Shown here in pieces: positions 4,152 through 28,365 of a DNA stretch of 64,000 nt. Each line of letters begins with the position of its first letter. Within the stretch, counting starts at the first letter, position 1. The notes beneath the pieces were generated by a model. That model worked only from the letters and a program-made list of their open reading frames with translations. It searched no databases and had not been told where the DNA came from. This stretch comes from Streptomyces sp. NBC_01788 (GTDB lineage: Bacteria; Actinomycetota; Actinomycetes; Streptomycetales; Streptomycetaceae): NCBI RefSeq assembly GCF_035917575.1, contig NZ_CP109090.1, positions 2,294,001 through 2,358,000 on the forward strand, in the 5' to 3' direction. Made by a program: the position numbers and the translations under genes.

Positions 4152-6173
4152 TCAGTACCGGCGTTCCTGCTTCTGCTTGCACTCCACGCACAGGGTGGCC
4201 CGCGGGAAGGCCTGCATGCGGGCCTTGCCGATGGGGTTGCCGCAGGTCTCGCACAGGCCGTAGATGCCCGCGTCGAGCCGTTGCAGGGCCCGCTCGCTCT
4301 GGGTGAGCATCTCGCGCGCGTTGGCGGCCAGCGCCATCTCGTGCTCGCGGGTGATGTTCTTGCTGCCGGTGTCCGCCTCGTCGTCGCCCGCGCCGTCGCC
4401 GGAGTCCCGCATCAGGCCCGCGAGGGACTCCTCGGACGAGGTGATCTCGGCGCTCAGCCGCTCCATCTCGGACTCCAGCTCCGCGCGGGCCTCCGAGACC
4501 TCCTCCAGGGTCCAGGGGTCCTCGCCCGGGCGTACCGGGAGGTCGGCCGGATCCACCGCCGCGGCGATGCGTGCCTTGGGCACGGCGGTCTTGGCCGCCG
4601 CGGCCGTGCCAGGGGTCTTCTTCGCAACCACTGTCGTGGCTCCCGTCTGCTTCGCGGCCCGCGCCGCGCCCGCCTTCTTGGCCGTCCTCTTCCTGCCCGC
4701 ACCAGCACCGGAGACACCAGGAGCCACCACATGCCCCGCATCGTCCCCGCCCCCCGCCCCACCGCCCCGATCGCGCACGGTCCCCCCGCTCCCCGTCCGC
4801 CCGGCCTCCCGGGTCCCCGCGCCCTCGACGGCAGCCCCGTCGGCCACCGACTCCTCGCCGGCAGCGACCACCGCCCGCCGAGCGCCCTCTCGGCCCGCCT
4901 TACGGGTGACCCGCTCCTCCTCGGCGGCCGCACCCCCGCCGGAAGCCACCACCGACCGACGAGTGCCCTTGCCTCCCGCCTTACGAGTGGCCCCTCCCCC
5001 GTTGGCCCTCCGCGCACCCGGCTCCTCGACGACACCGCTGTCGGCGGCCGCGTCGACGGTCCCCATCGAGTCCTCGCCGGCGGCCTGCTCCTCCTCGGCG
5101 GCCGCACCCCCGCCGGAAGCCACCACCGACCCACGAGTGCCCTTGCCTCCCGCCTTACGAGTGGCCCCTCCCCCGTTGGCCCTCCGCGCACCCGGCTCCT
5201 CGACGACACCGCTGTCGACTGCCGCGTCGACGGTCCCCATCGAGTCCTCGCCGGCGGCCTGCTCCTCCTCGGCGGCCGCACCCCCGCCGGAAGCCACCAC
5301 GGACCCACGAGCGCGCTTTGCGCCCGCCTTACGGGTGGCCTCCTTGCCGGTGGCCGCCCTCCGGGCGCCCGGCTTCTCGGCGGCGCTGTGGGTGCCCGCG
5401 CTCCCGCAGTCGGTGTGCTTTCCCCCGGGCCTTTCGGACACGGCAGGTCCGGCCGCCACCGCGGCGCCCGCTTCCTCGCCCGCGGCGTGCTTCTTCACGG
5501 CCTCCCGTGCGGCACCCACGCCACGCCCGTCGGCCGCGCCACCATCGGCAGGGGCCTTCCCCGTGCCCGGCCGCTCGGCGGCGGCCTTCTTCGCGGCTGT
5601 CCGGGCTGTGCGCGCGCCCCTGCCGGCGGCATCCGCCGCGGAGAGGCTCTCGGCCGCCTTCTCCCCCGCGTCCGGGGCCTCCGCGGGCTCCGGCCCGGCG
5701 GGGGGCTTCCCCGGCGTGGTCCGCTCGCCAGGGGGCTTCTTCGCCGTGGCGCCCCTGGAGCGGAGTTCCGCGGCGGCGGGGCGCCGCTCAGGCGCCGCCC
5801 TGCCCGCCGCCGGCTTCTTCGCGGCGGCCTTCCGCGTGCCCTTCGCGGGAGCCGGCTGCGCCGGTTCCCGGGGCGCCGCCGTCGGCTCCCCCGCGGCAGC
5901 CGGTTCCTCCCCGGCCGGCCCCTGCCCGCGCCCGGCCGTGTTCGCCCTTGCCGTCGGGCCCCTGCGCCCGCGTCCGGTCGTCGGTCCGGCCTCGGCCGTC
6001 CGCTTCTGCTTCGGCGTGACCGGCTCCTTCATGGCCACCGCCTCCTTCGCGGCCCCGCCTGATGCCCTGGCCGCCGCTCGGGTGGTCTTCCTGGCCGCGC
6101 CGCCGGCGGCATCGGGACCGGTGCCCCGGGACCTGCCGGACGCCGACTGCTCGGCGGTCTGCTTCGCCACCAT
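4152..6173 (-). CDS. TraR/DksA-family zinc-finger protein with long Ala/Lys/Gly-rich N-terminus
   Basis: The last about 130 residues form a DksA/TraR-like unit: a helical hairpin ([20 protein letters not shown] onward), a [15 protein letters not shown] knuckle and a second Cys-x-x-Cys, together a four-Cys zinc finger. Known family members bind RNA polymerase through its secondary channel or other sites. The preceding about 540 residues are low-complexity, rich in Ala, Gly, Lys, Arg and Glu with AKK/ARK-like patches resembling histone H1 tails, and contain a 58-residue tandem repeat. The ATG at 6173 has GAAGGGG upstream; the frame stays open further but lacks such a site. Total 673 residues, much larger than a typical DksA (about 150). 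A DNA- or nucleoid-binding role for the tail is inference. Confidence 0.85.
4914..5330 (-). repeat. 174-bp in-frame tandem repeat, about 2.4 copies
   Basis: The marker tcggcgg followed by the same flanking bases recurs at 4921, 5095 and 5269, exactly 174 bp (58 codons) apart. Neighbouring copies are nearly identical at the DNA level, including synonymous positions. Each unit encodes a segment with [24 protein letters not shown] and [11 protein letters not shown]. The number of units is an obvious candidate for strain-to-strain variation. Confidence 0.85.
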
Positions 6174-6186
6174 GGCCGCGGCCCCT

Positions 6187-6199
6187 TCACATATTGTGA
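6187..6199. promoter_or_regulatory. Short inverted repeat next to the TraR/DksA-like start
   Basis: TCACA-TAT-TGTGA lies 14 to 26 bases upstream of the ATG at 6173, in a locally AT-rich patch unlike the surrounding GC-rich DNA. It overlaps the region just upstream of the ribosome site, so it could be an operator. No regulator is assigned. Confidence 0.35.
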
Positions 6200-6432
6200 T
6201 CTTGCTCGCGAATCGTGCTGGGACGATAAATCGACTTGAGTCCCGCGGCAACGGGGCACGCCGCCCGATTCGCCCGCCTCGCGCGGATCGCGCGGCCGGC
6301 ATGCATGCGTTGTGCCCAGCTCGCCGCCACGTAATCCGACGAGCCGCACGTCCTACGATCCGGACGGCGCCGCCGCGCAACCGGGTCACCACCGGACGGA
6401 AAATCGGTTCGGCCCCGGTCGCCGGGGCGCCG

Positions 6433-6438
6433 TACACT
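6433..6438 (+). promoter_or_regulatory. ileS: Possible -10 element (TACACT) for ileS
   Basis: TACACT at this position would start transcription near 6445, about 15 bases upstream of the base of T-box stem I and so consistent with the leader. The -35 region is not clear (TTCGGC at 6408 is a poor match). The rest of 6174-6432 shows no gene; it is a divergent promoter region. Confidence 0.35.
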
Positions 6439-6454
6439 GGGCGGAGCGAAAAGC

Positions 6455-6747
6455 GTGGATGGGGACGAGTAGCGGCGTACGCAGCCAAGAGCGACCCGGG
6501 GACGGTGTGAGCCCGGGGGCGAGCGCGACGCGAAGATCACCCCGGAGCCGCCGGAAGAAAGCCCCCAGCACCGAGCCAGGGGCCGGTAGAACCGGTATCG
6601 CGACCTCAATGAGGGGGCTCGTCGGAGCGTACGGCGCACCGGTGGGCCAAGGAGGGTGGTACCGCGGGAGCGCGCCGCACACGGCGTGGACACACAAAGG
6701 CTCTCGTCCCTCCGACGGAAGGCAGCACATCCGCCGGAGGAAGCTCG
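6455..6747 (+). promoter_or_regulatory. ileS: T-box riboswitch (tRNA-Ile sensing, translational type)
   Basis: Leader RNA that measures uncharged tRNA-Ile. Visible parts, in order: a basal helix GGGG (6461-6464) with CCCC (6540-6543); an AGTA motif (6468-6471); a specifier loop GAAGATCA with Ile codon ATC at 6536-6538; and the T-box TGGTACCGCG beginning at 6657, whose TGG can pair with the tRNA acceptor end. GGAGGG (6651-6656) can pair with CCCTCC (6708-6713). The same CCTCCG (6709-6714) can instead pair with CGGAGG (6735-6740), which is the ribosome site. These two helices exclude each other, so regulation is of translation. This type is established for actinobacterial ileS. Confidence 0.92.
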
Positions 6748-10077: not shown

Positions 10078-11328
10078 TCAGTTGTCGTCCTCGTCGATCA
10101 GGAAGCCGCGCATGGGCGACGGCGCCTGACCCATCGGGGCCGGACCCTGCGGACGCACGGGGGCCATCGGCTGGGTCATCGCCGGGGCCATCTGCTGCTG
10201 ACCGCCGTAGGACGGACCGGACGGGCCGGGCGCACCGCCCATCGGCTGACCGCCGTAGGACGGGGCACTCGCGCCGGCCGGGGCCATGGAGGGCGCCGGG
10301 GACGGCGGCAGGGACGGGGCCGCGGGGGTGCGCGGCGGGGCGAGGGAGTCGTCGGCCTGCGTCTCCAGCTGGCGCAGCTGCGACTCCAGGTACGACTTCA
10401 GGCGCGTGCGGTACTCGCGCTCGAAGCCGCGCAGGTCCTCGACCTTGCGCTCCAGCGTGGCGCGGGCGGACTCCAGGGAGCCCATCGCGACGCGGTGCTT
10501 CTCCTGCGCGTCCCGCTCCAGGGCGTCGGCCTTGGCACGGGCGTCACGCTCCAGACCCTCGGCACGCGAACGCGCCTCGCCGACGATCTTGTTGGCCTCG
10601 GAGCGCGCCTCGGCGATCGCCTGGTCGGCGGTCTGCTGGGCCAGCGACAGGACGCGCGCGGCGCTGTCGCCACCGGGACCCTGACCCATCGGACCGGGAC
10701 CTTGACCCATCGGACCGGGACCCTGACCCATCGGGCCGGGGCCACCCATGGGACCGGGGCCACCCATCGGGCCGGGACCCATCTGGCCCTGCATCTGGCC
10801 CTGCATCTGACCCTGCATCGGGTTCTGCATCTGGCCCTGCATAGGGTTCTGCATCTGACCCTGCATCGGGCCAGGCCCCTGACCCATCGGACCGGGACCC
10901 ATCTGGCCGGGGCCAGGACCGCCGGGACCACCGGGACCCTGGGGACCCTGACCGCCCGGACCTGCCGGAAGCTGCGGAGCACCGCTGGGCAGCTGGGGCG
11001 GGCCACCCATGGGGCCGCCCATCTGCTGCTGCGGCGGGCCCGATATCCCGGCGGGCACAGGCGCGCCGGGACCTCGCATGCCCTGCTGCTGAGGATGCGG
11101 TGGCTGCTGCTGGTCCTCCGGAGGCTTGCGCATGTTCTGCTGGTTCTGGGCAGCAGCACGCGTCGCGGCGGCCAGTTTGGCGCGCAGGTCCTCGTTCTCG
11201 CGGAGCAGTCGGGTCAGCTCGGCTTCGACCTCGTCGAGGAAGGCATCGACCTCGTCCTCGTCATAGCCTTCTCGGAGGCGGACGGTCGTGAACTGCTTGT
11301 TCCGCACGTCCTCGGGGGTCAACGGCAT
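10078..11328 (-). CDS. divIVA: DivIVA, polar growth organiser
   Basis: Coiled-coil cytoskeletal protein that marks hyphal tips, recruits the wall-synthesis machinery and sets branch sites in Streptomyces. The start [34 protein letters not shown] is the conserved N-terminal membrane-curvature-binding domain (about residues 1-60). A long Pro/Gln/Gly/Met-rich linker (about 75-215) precedes the main coiled coil (about 220-325) and a Pro/Gly/Gln-rich tail ending DEDDN. The linker contains tandem repeats. Ribosome site GAGGTGAAGAG precedes the ATG at 11328. It is the last gene of the dcw block. Confidence 0.97.
10675..10930 (-). repeat. divIVA: Short tandem repeats encoding the DivIVA linker
   Basis: Imperfect 21-bp units (GQGPGPM) occur three times near 10680-10735, then 18-bp units (GGPGPM). 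Next come 12- to 24-bp units encoding QGQM and QNPM. All keep frame. The block encodes the flexible spacer between the N-terminal domain and the coiled coil and looks prone to expansion or contraction. Confidence 0.75.
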
Positions 11329-24451: not shown

Positions 24452-26407
24452 TCACGGCTTGAAGTCGACGGGCAGGTTCGCGGCCTGCGCGCCGGTCGGC
24501 GGCACCTGGAGCGTCTTCAGCGCGAACTCCATGACCTCCTTGTAGATCGGGCCGCAGATCTGGCCGCCGAAGTAGCTGCCCTTGGTGGCGTTCTGGATCG
24601 CGCAGTAGACAGTGACGCGCGGGTTGTCGGCGGGCGCGAACCCGGCGAAGGAGGAGGTGTAGCCGTGGTATCTGCCGGTGTCCGGATCCACGCGGTTGGC
24701 CGTGCCGGTCTTGCCCGCCACCCGGTAGCCGGGGATGCGCGCCTTGACGCCGGTGCCCTGCTCGTCGTCCACCACGGACTCCAGCATCTGCGCGAGCGTC
24801 TTCGCCGTCCTGGCGCTCACGACCCGTGTGCTCTCCGGCTTGGCGGCCGGCGTGAAGCGGCCGTCGGCGCCCTTGGTCCCGCGCACCAGCGTCGGCTGCA
24901 CCCGCACTCCGCCGTTGGCGATCGTGGAGTAGACGGAGGCCGCCTGTACGGCGTTGATGGCGAAGCCCTGGCCGAACGGGATCGTGAACTGCTGCGACGT
25001 GGACCACTTGTCGGGCGGAGCGAGGATGCCCCTGGTCTCGCCGGGGAAGCCGAGTCCGGTCGGCTCGCCGATGCCGAACTTGCGCAGATAGGAGTAGAGG
25101 ACCTTGTTGGCCTCCGGCTGCGTCCCGCCGAGCTGGCCGGTGGCCAGGATGGTGCCGATGTTGCTGGACTTGGCGAGCACTCCGTTCAGGGTGAGGTACC
25201 AGGTGGCGTGGTCGACGTCGTCCTGGAAGAGACGGTCGCCGCGGTGCAGCCGGTTGGGCACGACGACGTGGGTGAGCGGAGTCGCCGCGTTCTCCTCCAG
25301 TACGGCGGCCATGGACATGACCTTGGCGGTGGAGCCGGGCTCGTAGGCGTCCTGGAGGGCGGCGTTGCCCAGCGCGGACGGGTTGGCGTGGGCCAGGTCG
25401 CCCGGGTCGAAGCCCGGGGAGTTGGCCATGGCAAGGATCTCGCCGGTGCGGGTGTCCTGGACGATGACGTAGCCGCGGTCCGCCCCGGACTTCGCCACCT
25501 GCTCGGCGATGGCGTTCTGGGCGGCCCACTGGATGTCGCGGTCGATGGTGAGCTCGGTGTCGGAGCCGGGCACCGCGCGGGTCTCGGTGGAGCCCGCGGT
25601 GGGCACCTCGCGGCCGCCGGACTGGGCGTAGCGGATCTTGCCGGGCTTGCCGGCCAGCTGCTCGTTCAGCTGCTGCTCCACACCGCCGCCGCCCTTGCCC
25701 TCGGCGTTGACCCAGCCCAGTATCCCGGCGGCGAGGTCGCCGTTGGGATAGACCCGCTTGCTGCTGGGGTCGGAGAAGACGCCGGCGAGCACGTTGACGG
25801 TGGCCTTGTCCTTCTGGGCCTTCTTCACTAGGGCCGTCTTCAGGTCCTTGATCTGCTTCCAGACCTGCGGGGTCTCGCGGCGGGCGAGCAGGACGTAGCG
25901 GGTGTTCGGCGTGCGGAGCCTGGCGGCGAGGGCCGCCTGGTCCTGGCCGAGGATCGGGGCGAGCAGCGCGGCCGCCTGCTCGGGGCCGTCGCCGATGCCG
26001 AGCTGGGCGCGGGTGAACATGGTGGGGTCGGCGGTGATGTCGTCGGCGTCCACGCTGGTCGCCAGGTCGACGCCGTTGCGGTCGGTGATGCGGCCCCGCT
26101 CGGCGGCCAGGGTGTGCACCACGTACCGGTTCTCCTCGGCCTTGGCGGCGTACGCGCTCGCGTCGAAGGCCTGCACCTGCAGCAGCCGTACGGCGAAGAC
26201 GAGCAGCACCAGGGTCAGCGCCAGAGTGACCAGGCGCAACCGCGGGCGGGGGCTGCCGAGCCGGATGCGCGCGGCCTGGGGGCGGGCCGGGGCCGGACGG
26301 CGGGCCGGCCGGGCACCGGGGCCGGGGCCGGGGCGCTGCCGGGCGGCCGGCCGCGCCGGCCCGGCGGGTCCGGGCACCCGGCGACGCGGCGGTTCCCTGT
26401 CGGACAC
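24452..26407 (-). CDS. ftsI: FtsI (PBP3), septal transpeptidase
   Basis: Class B penicillin-binding protein that crosslinks septal peptidoglycan. About 651 residues: Pro/Arg-rich cytoplasmic start, one membrane helix (LRLVTLALTLVLLVFAVRLL, about 60-80), dimerisation domain, then the transpeptidase with STAK (Ser359), SSN and KTG (Lys566). GTG at 26407 is preferred because AGGTGA lies five bases upstream. A GTG at 26416 would overlap the stop of the short upstream ORF as GTGA. The upstream junction is duplicated (see the repeat entry at 26380-26815). Confidence 0.95.
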   Translation of the reverse strand: MSDREPPRRRVPGPAGPARPAARQRPGPGPGARPARRPAPARPQAARIRLGSPRPRLRLVTLALTLVLLVFAVRLLQVQAFDASAYAAKAEENRYVVHTLAAERGRITDRNGVDLATSVDADDITADPTMFTRAQLGIGDGPEQAAALLAPILGQDQAALAARLRTPNTRYVLLARRETPQVWKQIKDLKTALVKKAQKDKATVNVLAGVFSDPSSKRVYPNGDLAAGILGWVNAEGKGGGGVEQQLNEQLAGKPGKIRYAQSGGREVPTAGSTETRAVPGSDTELTIDRDIQWAAQNAIAEQVAKSGADRGYVIVQDTRTGEILAMANSPGFDPGDLAHANPSALGNAALQDAYEPGSTAKVMSMAAVLEENAATPLTHVVVPNRLHRGDRLFQDDVDHATWYLTLNGVLAKSSNIGTILATGQLGGTQPEANKVLYSYLRKFGIGEPTGLGFPGETRGILAPPDKWSTSQQFTIPFGQGFAINAVQAASVYSTIANGGVRVQPTLVRGTKGADGRFTPAAKPESTRVVSARTAKTLAQMLESVVDDEQGTGVKARIPGYRVAGKTGTANRVDPDTGRYHGYTSSFAGFAPADNPRVTVYCAIQNATKGSYFGGQICGPIYKEVMEFALKTLQVPPTGAQAANLPVDFKP

Positions 26408-26815
26408 TTCCGTCACCTGCCGAGAGTCGAAATCGAAACGAACCGGAACACAACGGCGCCCACCGGACGCCGCGACGACTTCCTCCAGGCCACGTCCGTC
26501 GAGACGTGAGCGGGCCGGGCCGCACCCCGGAGCGCCGGGGCGGCGGACAGGACAACCCCGGAAGCCGCACACGGCCGGACGCCCGGCGCAGCGGGCCCGG
26601 CCGGACCGGACACCCGGCGACGCGGCGGTTCCGTCGCGGACACGACCGGCGAGACCGGAGCGAGTCGGGGCACGGCCGTGACCGCCGGAACGGGGCGTAC
26701 TGCTCCCCCGGAGGCCGAACACAACGGGGCCCCCGGCCCGGCGGGCCCGGGCAGGCCGGGCGGCGGGCGGCGGGGCGGTTCGCCGGCGGGCACGGCCGTC
26801 ACCTGCCGGGGGCCG
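26380..26815 (-). repeat. Triplicated ftsL-ftsI junction
   Basis: Three copies of the ftsI 5' coding segment lie in direct orientation, marked by GGCGGTT on the plus strand at 26388, 26624 and 26774. Copies at 26388 and 26624 share at least 22 identical bases (the run encoding EPPRRRV). The outer copies also share CGGCAGGTGACGG, which is the ftsL stop plus ribosome site. The middle copy has lost that site. Spacings are 236 and 150 bp, so frame is kept only between the two upstream copies. A second shared word, ACACAACGG, recurs at 26447 and 26718. Confidence 0.75.
26413..26793 (-). CDS. Short Pro/Arg-rich ORF between ftsL and ftsI, built from ftsI 5' duplications
   Basis: A 126-codon open frame starts at GTG 26793 with AGGTGA five bases upstream, the same spacing as the ftsI start. 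A GTG at 26802 also overlaps the ftsL stop as GTGA. It ends in TGA at 26413-26415, which overlaps a GTG in the ftsI frame as GTGA. The protein begins MPAGEPPRRPPPGLPGPAG and later contains TEPPRRRVSGPAGPAA. Both resemble the FtsI start SDREPPRRRVPGPAGPA. No membrane helix or catalytic domain is present. It may be translated only as a coupling device, or be a by-product. I do not know a family for it. Confidence 0.45.
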   Translation of the reverse strand: MPAGEPPRRPPPGLPGPAGPGAPLCSASGGAVRPVPAVTAVPRLAPVSPVVSATEPPRRRVSGPAGPAAPGVRPCAASGVVLSAAPALRGAARPAHVSTDVAWRKSSRRPVGAVVFRFVSISTLGR

Positions 26816-27395
26816 GGGTCGTGGCCGGGGCGGCGGGCGTGGTGCCGCCCAGGGCCGGGACGGGGCCCTGGGCGGGTGGCGGCGCCGCGTTCGTGGTGGG
26901 GAGTACCGCGTTCGTGGTGGAGGGTGCGGTGTCCGTGGTTGCCGGGGCCGTGGCGTCCGCGGTGGACGGCGAGGGGGTGAGCGCCTCGGGCGGCAGCAGC
27001 GACAGCGGCGTCTCCTCCGCGGGAGGCGGCTCCGGGGCGGCCGAGGGGACGCCCTTGACGGTTCCGTCGGCGTTCAGGAAGGCCGGGTCGCCGCCGGGCA
27101 CCATGCCCAGTTGCCGGGCGCGGAGCTGGAGGGCGTCCGGGGCGGAGTAGGAGTCGATGTCCCGCTGGAGGGCCTGCTCCTCGTCGGTGAGGTTCTTGGT
27201 GTCCTTCTGGAGCCCCTCCCGCTGGAACGCGCCCTCGCTGAGCGCGGAGTTCAGCATCAGCAGCCCGATGAGGCCACCGCCGAGCAGCAGCACGACGAGG
27301 AGGACGAACGGGGTGCGGGCGGCCTGCCCCCGGCCCGCCGGGAAGAGCCGGGCGAGCCGGGCGGCCCGGCCTCTCAGTTCGGGTTTCCTGCTCAC
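26799..27395 (-). CDS. ftsL: FtsL-like septum protein
   Basis: Small bitopic divisome protein of 198 residues. A basic cytoplasmic start (SRKPELRGRAARLARLFP) precedes one membrane helix (about residues 28-50). A short extracellular coiled coil follows (EGLQKDTKNLTDEEQALQRDI), then a Pro/Thr/Ala-rich tail of about 85 residues. Assignment rests on size, topology and the position between rsmH and ftsI. GTG at 27395 has GGGGAG just upstream and lies 13 bp after the rsmH stop. FtsL joins FtsQ (and DivIC) to activate FtsW/FtsI. Confidence 0.9.
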   Translation of the reverse strand: MSRKPELRGRAARLARLFPAGRGQAARTPFVLLVVLLLGGGLIGLLMLNSALSEGAFQREGLQKDTKNLTDEEQALQRDIDSYSAPDALQLRARQLGMVPGGDPAFLNADGTVKGVPSAAPEPPPAEETPLSLLPPEALTPSPSTADATAPATTDTAPSTTNAVLPTTNAAPPPAQGPVPALGGTTPAAPATTPAPGR

Positions 27396-27408
27396 TGCTC
27401 CCCCTGGC

Positions 27409-28365
27409 TCACTCGACGTCCTTCCTGACGCGCTCGGCGCCGCGCAGCCGGGCCGGCGCCGCCCGCCGGTTCTCGGCGATCTCCTCCTCGGTGGGAAGTT
27501 CGGCACCGCGGGTGAGCAGCTTGAGCCGGGGCTGGTAGCGCTCGGGCACGACCGGGAGCCCCGGGGGCGCGGTCGACGCCGCACCGGCCGCGAACACCTG
27601 CTTGACCAGGCGGTCCTCCAGGGAGTGGTACGACAGCACGGCGATCCGCCCGCCGACGTCCAGCGCCTTCACCGCGGCCGGGATCGCCCGCTCCAGCACG
27701 GCGAGCTCGCCGTTGACCTCGATCCGCAGCGCCTGGAAGGTGCGCTTGGCCGGGTTGCCGCCGGTGCGCTTGGCGGCCTGCGGCAGCGCGTCGCGGATCA
27801 GCTCCACCAGCCGGGCGCTGTTGGTGAACGGCTCCTTCTCGCGCTCGCGCACGACGGCGGCCACGATCCGCTTGGCCTGCTTCTCCTCGCCGTACGCCCG
27901 CAGCAGGCGGACCAGCTCGCCGGGCGGGTAGGTGTTGAGGACCTCGGCGGCGCTGATCCCGGTGCTCTGGTCCATGCGCATGTCCAGGGGCGCGTCCTGC
28001 GCGTAGGCGAAGCCGCGGTCGGCCTCGTCGAGCTGCATCGAGGACACCCCGAGGTCGAACAGGACGCCCTGTACCCGCGGCACGCCCAGGCGGTCGAGCA
28101 CGTCGGGCAGCTCGTCGTAGACGGCGTGCACCAGGGTGGCCCGGTCGCCGAAGGGTGCCAGGCGCTCCCCGGACAGGCGCAGGGCCTCCTTGTCCCGGTC
28201 GAGGGCCACCAGCCGCGCCTCGGGGAAGCGGGTGAGCAGCGCCTCGCTGTGTCCGCCGAGGCCGAGTGTGCAGTCGACGACCACCGCTCCCGGCCGCTCC
28301 AGGGCGGGCGCCAGCAGGTCCAGGCACCGCTGGAGCATCACGGGGACGTGTCGGCTGTCGGTCAA
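27409..28365 (-). CDS. rsmH: RsmH (MraW), 16S rRNA m4C1402 methyltransferase
   Basis: SAM-dependent enzyme that N4-methylates C1402 in the ribosomal decoding centre. The 318 residues begin with the family block [14 protein letters not shown]. The SAM motif is [33 protein letters not shown] and [15 protein letters not shown] are further signatures. Start codon is TTG at 28365 with GAGGG upstream; no better start is in frame. First gene of the dcw operon here. Confidence 0.95.

What the first reader, a model, noticed from the sequence alone, without database searches (positions are those of the whole stretch)
26380..26815. Triplicated ftsL-ftsI junction with an inserted coupled ORF
Three direct copies of the ftsI 5' segment (marker GGCGGTT at 26388, 26624, 26774) lie between the end of ftsL and the real ftsI. 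The outer two keep the ribosome site AGGTGA and a GTG start at identical spacing; the middle copy has lost them. The result is a 126-codon ORF (26413-26793) inserted between two divisome genes that are usually adjacent. Its N-terminus resembles the FtsI cytoplasmic start, so it could compete for the partners of the FtsI N-terminus or simply tune FtsI translation. An ancestral junction would have been ftsL stop/AGGTGA/ftsI start without a gap.
Basis: partly seen in the sequence, partly recalled or inferred. Interest (0 to 1): 0.8.

Follow-up and report, generated by a model that had tools for sequence, protein, structure and literature searches.

The report
Duplicated gene junction forms relay ORF
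Between two Streptomyces cell-division genes the short "stop here, restart here" signal has been copied in tandem, leaving a reading frame that probably carries the ribosome from one gene to the next rather than making a useful protein; such copies recur in other Streptomyces, and in the genomes examined they nearly always keep that frame.

Summary
On the minus strand, ftsL (stop at 26799) and ftsI (start 26407) are separated by three diverged copies of their own junction and a 126-codon ORF (26413-26793) that starts like ftsI and ends like ftsL. Most genomes surveyed have one junction, 4-5 nt between stop and start, with the ftsL stop inside the ftsI ribosome site (AGGTGA). Expanded junctions recur: 7 of 69 measurable named genomes, plus the window and others found by motif or homology. 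Of 16 distinct copy spacings 15 are 2 mod 3, the phase that ends the inserted ORF on the TGA inside the next AGGTGA; one is 0 mod 3 and fuses in frame to ftsI; none is 1 mod 3. A same-species genome differs by 9 nt. The peptide is nearly unconstrained (dN/dS 0.71-1.04 in five close pairs, 0.56-0.80 in five distant; ftsL 0.15-0.43 in the close pairs) and no homolog was found. Best reading: recurrent tandem duplication of a stop/SD/start module, kept where it preserves ribosome hand-over from ftsL to ftsI. Translation is not shown. Closest known: mycobacterial MIRUs, which are mobile; this repeat is local.

The parts
27409..28365 (-). rsmH (mraW) upstream gene, 318 aa
   Evidence: ORF list; Pfam Methyltransf_5 E 9.9e-112
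27392..27412 (-). possible 6-codon mini relay ORF between rsmH and ftsL (GTG overlaps rsmH TGA, TGA overlaps ftsL GTG)
   Evidence: read directly from the sequence; function inferred, and this junction is not restricted to one phase in relatives
26799..27395 (-). ftsL, 198 aa, ends ...PAPGR stop
   Evidence: weak DivIC Pfam match below the curated cut-off; gene order
26791..26807 (-). start module GGCAGGTGACGGCCGTG: ftsL stop inside the SD, then GTG of the inserted ORF
   Evidence: identical in same-species genome G660/L144, which was found by this motif
26413..26793 (-). inserted (relay) ORF, 126 codons plus TGA; starts ftsI-like, ends ftsL-like (LGR stop)
   Evidence: open in G660 with a 9-nt indel
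26708..26815 (-). junction copy A (next to ftsL)
26558..26665 (-). junction copy B, internal; SD/stop lost; in frame with copy A (spacing 150 = 0 mod 3), 236 nt from copy C (2 mod 3)
26322..26429 (-). junction copy C, the ftsL-type stop / ftsI start next to ftsI
26405..26421 (-). end module GGCAGGTGACGGAAGTG: stop of inserted ORF inside the SD of ftsI, then ftsI GTG
   Evidence: the commonest form in relatives
24452..26407 (-). ftsI (PBP3), 651 aa
   Evidence: Pfam Transpeptidase E 3.2e-72

Best explanation
The segment spanning the ftsL 3' end and the ftsI 5' end was duplicated in tandem (at least twice here) and has since diverged. The stop codon of ftsL lies inside the Shine-Dalgarno of the next ORF (AGGTGA) with a start codon 5 nt after the stop, so each new copy created a ready-made ORF that begins at an ftsI-like GTG and stops at the next module. 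Ribosomes finishing ftsL would restart on the inserted ORF, finish on the ftsI ribosome site and restart on ftsI. The insert is thus a relay that preserves ftsL-to-ftsI translational coupling across a gap that would otherwise break it. Selection keeps the frame and the end modules and hardly the peptide. Shown: the repeats, their recurrence, the phase rule and weak or absent constraint on the peptide. Inferred: translation of the insert, reinitiation and the fitness cost of uncoupling.
For: (1) The single 4-5-nt junction is the common state. Expanded junctions occur in 7 of 69 measurable named genomes, found by length and not by motif (of 80 named loci 10 could not be measured and L049 was dropped for a run of N). 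(2) Phase: 15 of 16 distinct spacings are 2 mod 3, the other is 0 mod 3 (in-frame N-terminal extension of ftsI), none is 1 mod 3; binomial P 7.7e-7 if independent. Named genomes only: 6 of 7, P 0.007. One test for each of six origins as I grouped them: 6 of 6, P 0.0014. (3) Control: rsmH-ftsL spacers use all three phases, 17/21/10 of 48 distinct values for phases 0/1/2 (88 loci); Fisher P 0.0004 against the commonest phase. (4) The same-species genome differs by 9 nt with the frame kept. (5) dN/dS of the insert 0.036/0.042, 0.158/0.224 and 0.205/0.198 in three close pairs, against ftsL 0.010/0.042, 0.037/0.087 and 0.016/0.104. (6) Flanking modules: 0 of 102 sites changed, against 72 of 564 in the middle (two of the three pairs were found by the motif). 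(7) Paper: in E. coli and Haloferax an intergenic gap of about 20-38 nt nearly abolishes reinitiation (PMC10666635; abstract and Discussion part 1 read).
Against: No expression or ribosome data. Absence of stops alone is weak: about 2.3 stops expected and P 0.10 for none in five pairs, because GC-rich DNA has few stops; in the window the other two forward frames are also open from the relay GTG into ftsI. Spacings within one family share ancestry, and some inserts of different families share short matches, so origins may be fewer than six. dN/dS is 0.71 in one close pair and 0.56-0.80 in five distant pairs, so weak constraint on the peptide is not excluded. The ftsI head just after the end module also changed (8 of 65 sites). 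ftsI has its own SD and might start independently. The paper itself reports rival studies that favour scanning over long gaps.
Confidence: 0.62

Rival explanations
1. Neutral by-product: repeats between two GC3-periodic coding ends align codon phase to codon phase, so duplications join frames in phase by mutation bias, and nothing selects for coupling.
For: Stop-free frames are only weakly unexpected (P about 0.10). The other 8 local repeats of this window, inside long ORFs, are all at offsets of 0 mod 3.
Against: Insert lengths differ by multiples of 3 within families (386/395/425; 305/302; 239/275). Spacers at the neighbouring rsmH-ftsL junction are not restricted to one phase. End modules stay unchanged while the middle drifts (with the ascertainment caveat).
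Confidence: 0.16
2. The insert must be translated to stop Rho-type polarity on the rest of the dcw operon; exact hand-over to ftsI is secondary.
For: A long untranslated stretch in a GC-rich transcript would be a polarity risk (established knowledge, recalled). The inserts with spacing 2 mod 3 are all open.
Against: Polarity alone would accept frames that overrun the ftsI start or end near it. Observed ORFs end exactly on the TGA in the ftsI SD, or fuse.
Confidence: 0.11
3. The 126-residue product is a working small protein, for example a decoy of the FtsI cytoplasmic N-terminus.
For: The start resembles FtsI (VPAGEPPRRPPPGLPGPAGP against VSDREPPRRRVPGPAGP). Several relatives keep near-identical heads. 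dN/dS of 0.56-0.80 in five distant pairs and 0.71 in one close pair.
Against: dN/dS 0.86-1.04 in the other four close pairs; no Pfam family; no homolog for this product or for the S. tuirus product; product length 35 to 212 residues across genomes.
Confidence: 0.06
4. An inserted mobile repeat of the MIRU kind.
For: MIRUs appear to insert at start codons with a coupled ORF (review PMC12548453, passages read).
Against: In the own genome the insert matches only itself, the adjacent ftsI head and one weak 48-nt place. In the loci shown the ends of the insert resemble the local ftsI head and ftsL tail.
Confidence: 0.03

Closest known systems
Mycobacterial interspersed repetitive units (MIRUs; Supply et al. 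1997, known here only through the review PMC12548453)
   Same: Repetitive DNA between genes carries an ORF coupled to the next gene, likely letting the operon tolerate the insertion
   Different: MIRUs appear mobile and couple by a 4-nt overlap at the insertion site. Here the repeat is local, made from the junction itself, and couples through a stop inside the SD with 5 nt to the start
Termination-reinitiation (TeRe) gene pairs (Huber et al. 2019, abstract seen; 2023, abstract and part of the Discussion read)
   Same: Stop and start lie within a few nt of each other next to an SD
   Different: A third, nearly unconstrained ORF is interposed and bridges two genes by two successive hand-overs
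Ribosome-delivering uORFs and bicistronic designs (PMC12548453 passages)
   Same: A short ORF whose role is to deliver a ribosome, not a protein
   Different: It lies inside an operon between two conserved genes and arose by junction duplication

Membership tests
Translationally coupled (TeRe) gene pair | stop and next start overlap or lie within about 10 nt | tested here: met
   5 nt between the ftsL stop and the insert start, and between the insert stop and the ftsI start
Translationally coupled (TeRe) gene pair | translation of the downstream ORF depends on the upstream one | not testable with these tools
   needs reporters; spacing phase 15 of 16 at 2 mod 3 is indirect support
MIRU | many dispersed copies in the genome | tested here: not met
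   own-genome search: only the local copies and one weak 48-nt match
MIRU | coupled by a 4-nt stop/start overlap at the insertion site | tested here: not met
   stop lies inside the SD, 5-nt spacer
Functional small protein | amino-acid sequence under clear purifying selection | tested here: inconclusive
   dN/dS 0.71-1.04 in five close pairs (three of them share members), 0.56-0.80 in five distant pairs with uncertain alignment; ftsL 0.15-0.43 in the close pairs
Functional small protein | recognisable family or homologs | tested here: not met
Functional small protein | translated product detected | not testable with these tools
   no ribosome or proteome data
Structured regulatory RNA | known family or unusually stable fold | tested here: not met
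   no Rfam match up to E 1; fold z-score -0.16

The most novel reading that the evidence does not exclude
Stop/SD/start junctions are self-propagating gene seeds: tandem duplication of such a junction inside an essential operon instantly makes a translated relay ORF whose peptide hardly matters and which is retained only in the hand-over phase. This would be a general route for operon spacers and new small ORFs in high-GC actinobacteria. The rsmH-ftsL junctions of Streptomyces sp. CoH27 (L049, 106-codon ORF) and sp. NBC_00620 (L077, 85-codon ORF starting like ftsL) would be further cases, though other long spacers there (L115, L125) were not shown to follow the phase.
Probability: 0.33. Interest if true: 0.7.

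Novelty: new variant of a known kind. Interest (0 to 1): 0.5.

Why it matters
It offers a natural experiment on whether translational coupling between divisome genes matters for fitness: related genomes carry junction copies 60 to 644 nt apart whose peptide drifts while the hand-over phase is kept. It also shows a simple way to create a new ORF inside an essential operon, and warns that such ORFs should not be read as small proteins from openness alone.

Tried and rejected
Hidden repeats in drafts: 10 of 80 named loci have contigs ending near the ftsI start, which suggested unresolved duplications. In none of those ten genomes does the stretch after ftsL share a 15-mer with the start of the ftsI contig (in S. 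tricolor, L135, the ftsL frame runs on into other sequence instead of ending). I read the breaks as GC-rich sequencing dropout, which is an inference.

First tree discarded: unaligned rows gave branch lengths of 3-4. Replaced by a codon alignment.

L049 looked like an ftsL-ftsI fusion; a run of N lies in its ftsL tail, so the locus was dropped from the count. L062 (+81 nt) was not counted as an expansion: its ftsL stop is followed by the usual 5-nt spacer and start, so the extra length is in the ftsI N-terminal part. Expansions under 50 nt over the median were not looked for.

Stop-free frames as proof of coding: too weak (P 0.10). Codon-position GC of the window insert is flat (0.79/0.75/0.82), unlike an ordinary Streptomyces gene (recalled comparison).

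Promoter or terminator: no promoter-like site; 2 terminator-like sites on the minus strand (0.2 expected by shuffling) with short stems, not followed up. Rfam and fold: nothing.

The genus search centred on G404 returned only genomes already held under earlier handles; no new expansion. The first motif search with one mismatch was too noisy and its listing was cut.

Full report
What is there. The window holds a Streptomyces dcw cluster on the minus strand: rsmH (27409-28365), ftsL (26799-27395), ftsI (24452-26407), then murE and murF ORFs (murE and murF named from gene order and sequence, not scanned). Between ftsL and ftsI lie three copies of the same junction, with marker GGCGGTT at 26388, 26624 and 26774, two of them 69% and 70% identical to the third over 108 nt and above shuffled controls. 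The outer copies keep the module GGCAGGTGACGGnnGTG. Its TGA is the stop of the upstream ORF, it lies within AGGTGA (a Shine-Dalgarno match, recalled), and the GTG follows after 5 nt. The ORF between them (26413-26793) reads from an ftsI-like start to an ftsL-like end (...LGR stop). The middle copy has lost stop and SD but sits in frame with the first copy (spacing 150 = 0 mod 3) and 236 nt (2 mod 3) from the last, so the path to ftsI stays open.

Ancestral state and recurrence. Loci of 80 named genomes, the best matches to the window's ftsI, and of relatives give the usual state: ftsL stop, 4 or 5 nt, ftsI start. By length alone (50 nt or more over the median) 7 of 69 measurable named genomes are expanded: S. 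olivaceoviridis, S. spinosus, S. barringtoniae, S. djakartensis, S. tuirus, S. griseus NRRL WC-3645 and S. viridochromogenes (the window and L049 are not counted, and L062 is longer inside ftsI). In a motif survey 225 of 392 genus genomes hold the exact motif; all genomes with two or more matches on one strand were looked at (listed or searched again), and 7 have two or three copies within 1 kb: G000, G009, G026, G284, G319, G350, G404. This is a lower bound: G007 carries an expansion with a changed motif. S. tuirus holds three modules 275 nt apart with identical ORFs. On an ftsI tree of 98 rows, 14 expanded rows need 8 changes, at least 6 forced by well-supported branches. Some may be losses: S. 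massasporeus (L107) has a single junction inside an otherwise expanded clade. Trimmed inserts match within families, but a few short matches also join families (for example G009 with G404, and S. spinosus with the window, 39 nt), so an older common origin is not excluded.

The phase rule. Distinct spacings between successive modules are 113, 176, 203, 218, 239, 248, 275, 302, 305, 368, 386, 395, 425, 437 and 644 (all 2 mod 3) and 60 (0 mod 3). With this module, 2 mod 3 is exactly the phase in which the ORF started by one module ends on the TGA in the next. The value 60, in S. viridochromogenes, has a damaged first SD (GGCATGTGA) and simply extends ftsI in frame. Treated as independent, 15 of 16 has P 7.7e-7. 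Conservative versions give 0.007 (named genomes only, 6 of 7) and 0.0014 (six origins as I grouped them). The neighbouring rsmH-ftsL spacer is a control: its 48 distinct lengths (88 loci) fall 17/21/10 in phases 0/1/2. It is an imperfect control, since phase 1, the direct relay phase there, is the commonest and ftsL has an SD of its own. The motif survey cannot see expansions whose modules decayed, so the length-based named set is the cleaner test.

The peptide. Ten pairs were computed. Five close pairs: same species 0.036/0.042 (nine nonsynonymous, five synonymous), S. olivaceoviridis with S. spinosus 0.158/0.224, S. djakartensis with G284 0.205/0.198, S. tuirus with S. djakartensis 0.232/0.225, S. 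tuirus with G284 0.267/0.291; ratios 0.71-1.04. ftsL in the same pairs has ratios 0.15-0.43, and ftsI, where measurable, 0.15-0.24; in the same-species pair only 39 ftsI codons could be compared and none differs. Five more distant pairs give 0.56-0.80, with uncertain alignments. Both modules are unchanged (0 of 102 sites) while the middle differs at 72 of 564; two of those three pairs were found by the motif, and the ftsI head beyond the end module also differs (8 of 65). No Pfam family, no homolog for the window product among 1,419 candidates or for the S. tuirus product among 176, no Rfam match, an ordinary fold.

How it most likely works. Termination-reinitiation in native E. coli and Haloferax pairs collapses with gaps of about 20-38 nt (PMC10666635, abstract and first part of the Discussion; that text also cites studies that favour long scanning). 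A 386-nt insert would therefore uncouple ftsI unless an ORF bridges it. The duplicated module supplies start and stop, so the insert is a relay. Selection would then act on phase and modules and hardly on the peptide. Translation and the coupling effect are inferred.

Comparison. [quoted passage not shown] the original paper was not seen. The principle (an inserted ORF that keeps coupling) is the same; origin, mobility and geometry differ, and the own genome holds no dispersed copies. Nine literature searches listed no title or abstract start on an ftsL-ftsI junction duplication in Streptomyces; three papers were opened (PMC10666635, PMC12548453, and PMC6728339 as abstract and outline), the other hits, among them PMC4255298, were not, and most subscription papers are not held.

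Verdict.

Noticed in passing
L049 1994-2314 and L077 2179-2461: Expanded rsmH-ftsL spacers (ftsL start 316 and 279 nt after the rsmH stop) hold open ORFs that begin by overlapping an upstream stop (GTGA) and end overlapping the ftsL start (GTGA). The L077 ORF (85 codons) follows a short first ORF and begins VSRKPEL like ftsL; the L049 ORF (106 codons) contains 10-codon repeats.
   Followed up: partly
L034-L113 (80 named loci): Contigs end at or near the ftsI start in 10 of 80 draft genomes; the ftsL side shares no 15-mer with the ftsI side.
   Followed up: yes
L035 1-40: The contig of Streptomyces sp. NTH33 begins with what looks like an untrimmed Nextera sequencing adapter (resemblance recalled).
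   Followed up: no
window 4152-6488 (-): Long ORF ending in a DksA/TraR-like zinc-finger region (resemblance recalled) with a repeat-rich part: 174-nt direct repeats, 96% identical, at 4910-5340.
   Followed up: no
window 10078-11328 (-): DivIVA-like protein (recalled) with a glutamine/methionine/proline/glycine-rich repetitive linker.
   Followed up: no
L107 2960-3060: S. massasporeus has a single junction within a clade of expanded genomes, suggesting loss by recombination between the repeats.
   Followed up: partly
window 26727-26739 and 26446-26461 (-): Two short terminator-like hairpins inside the insert (0.2 expected by shuffling).
   Followed up: no
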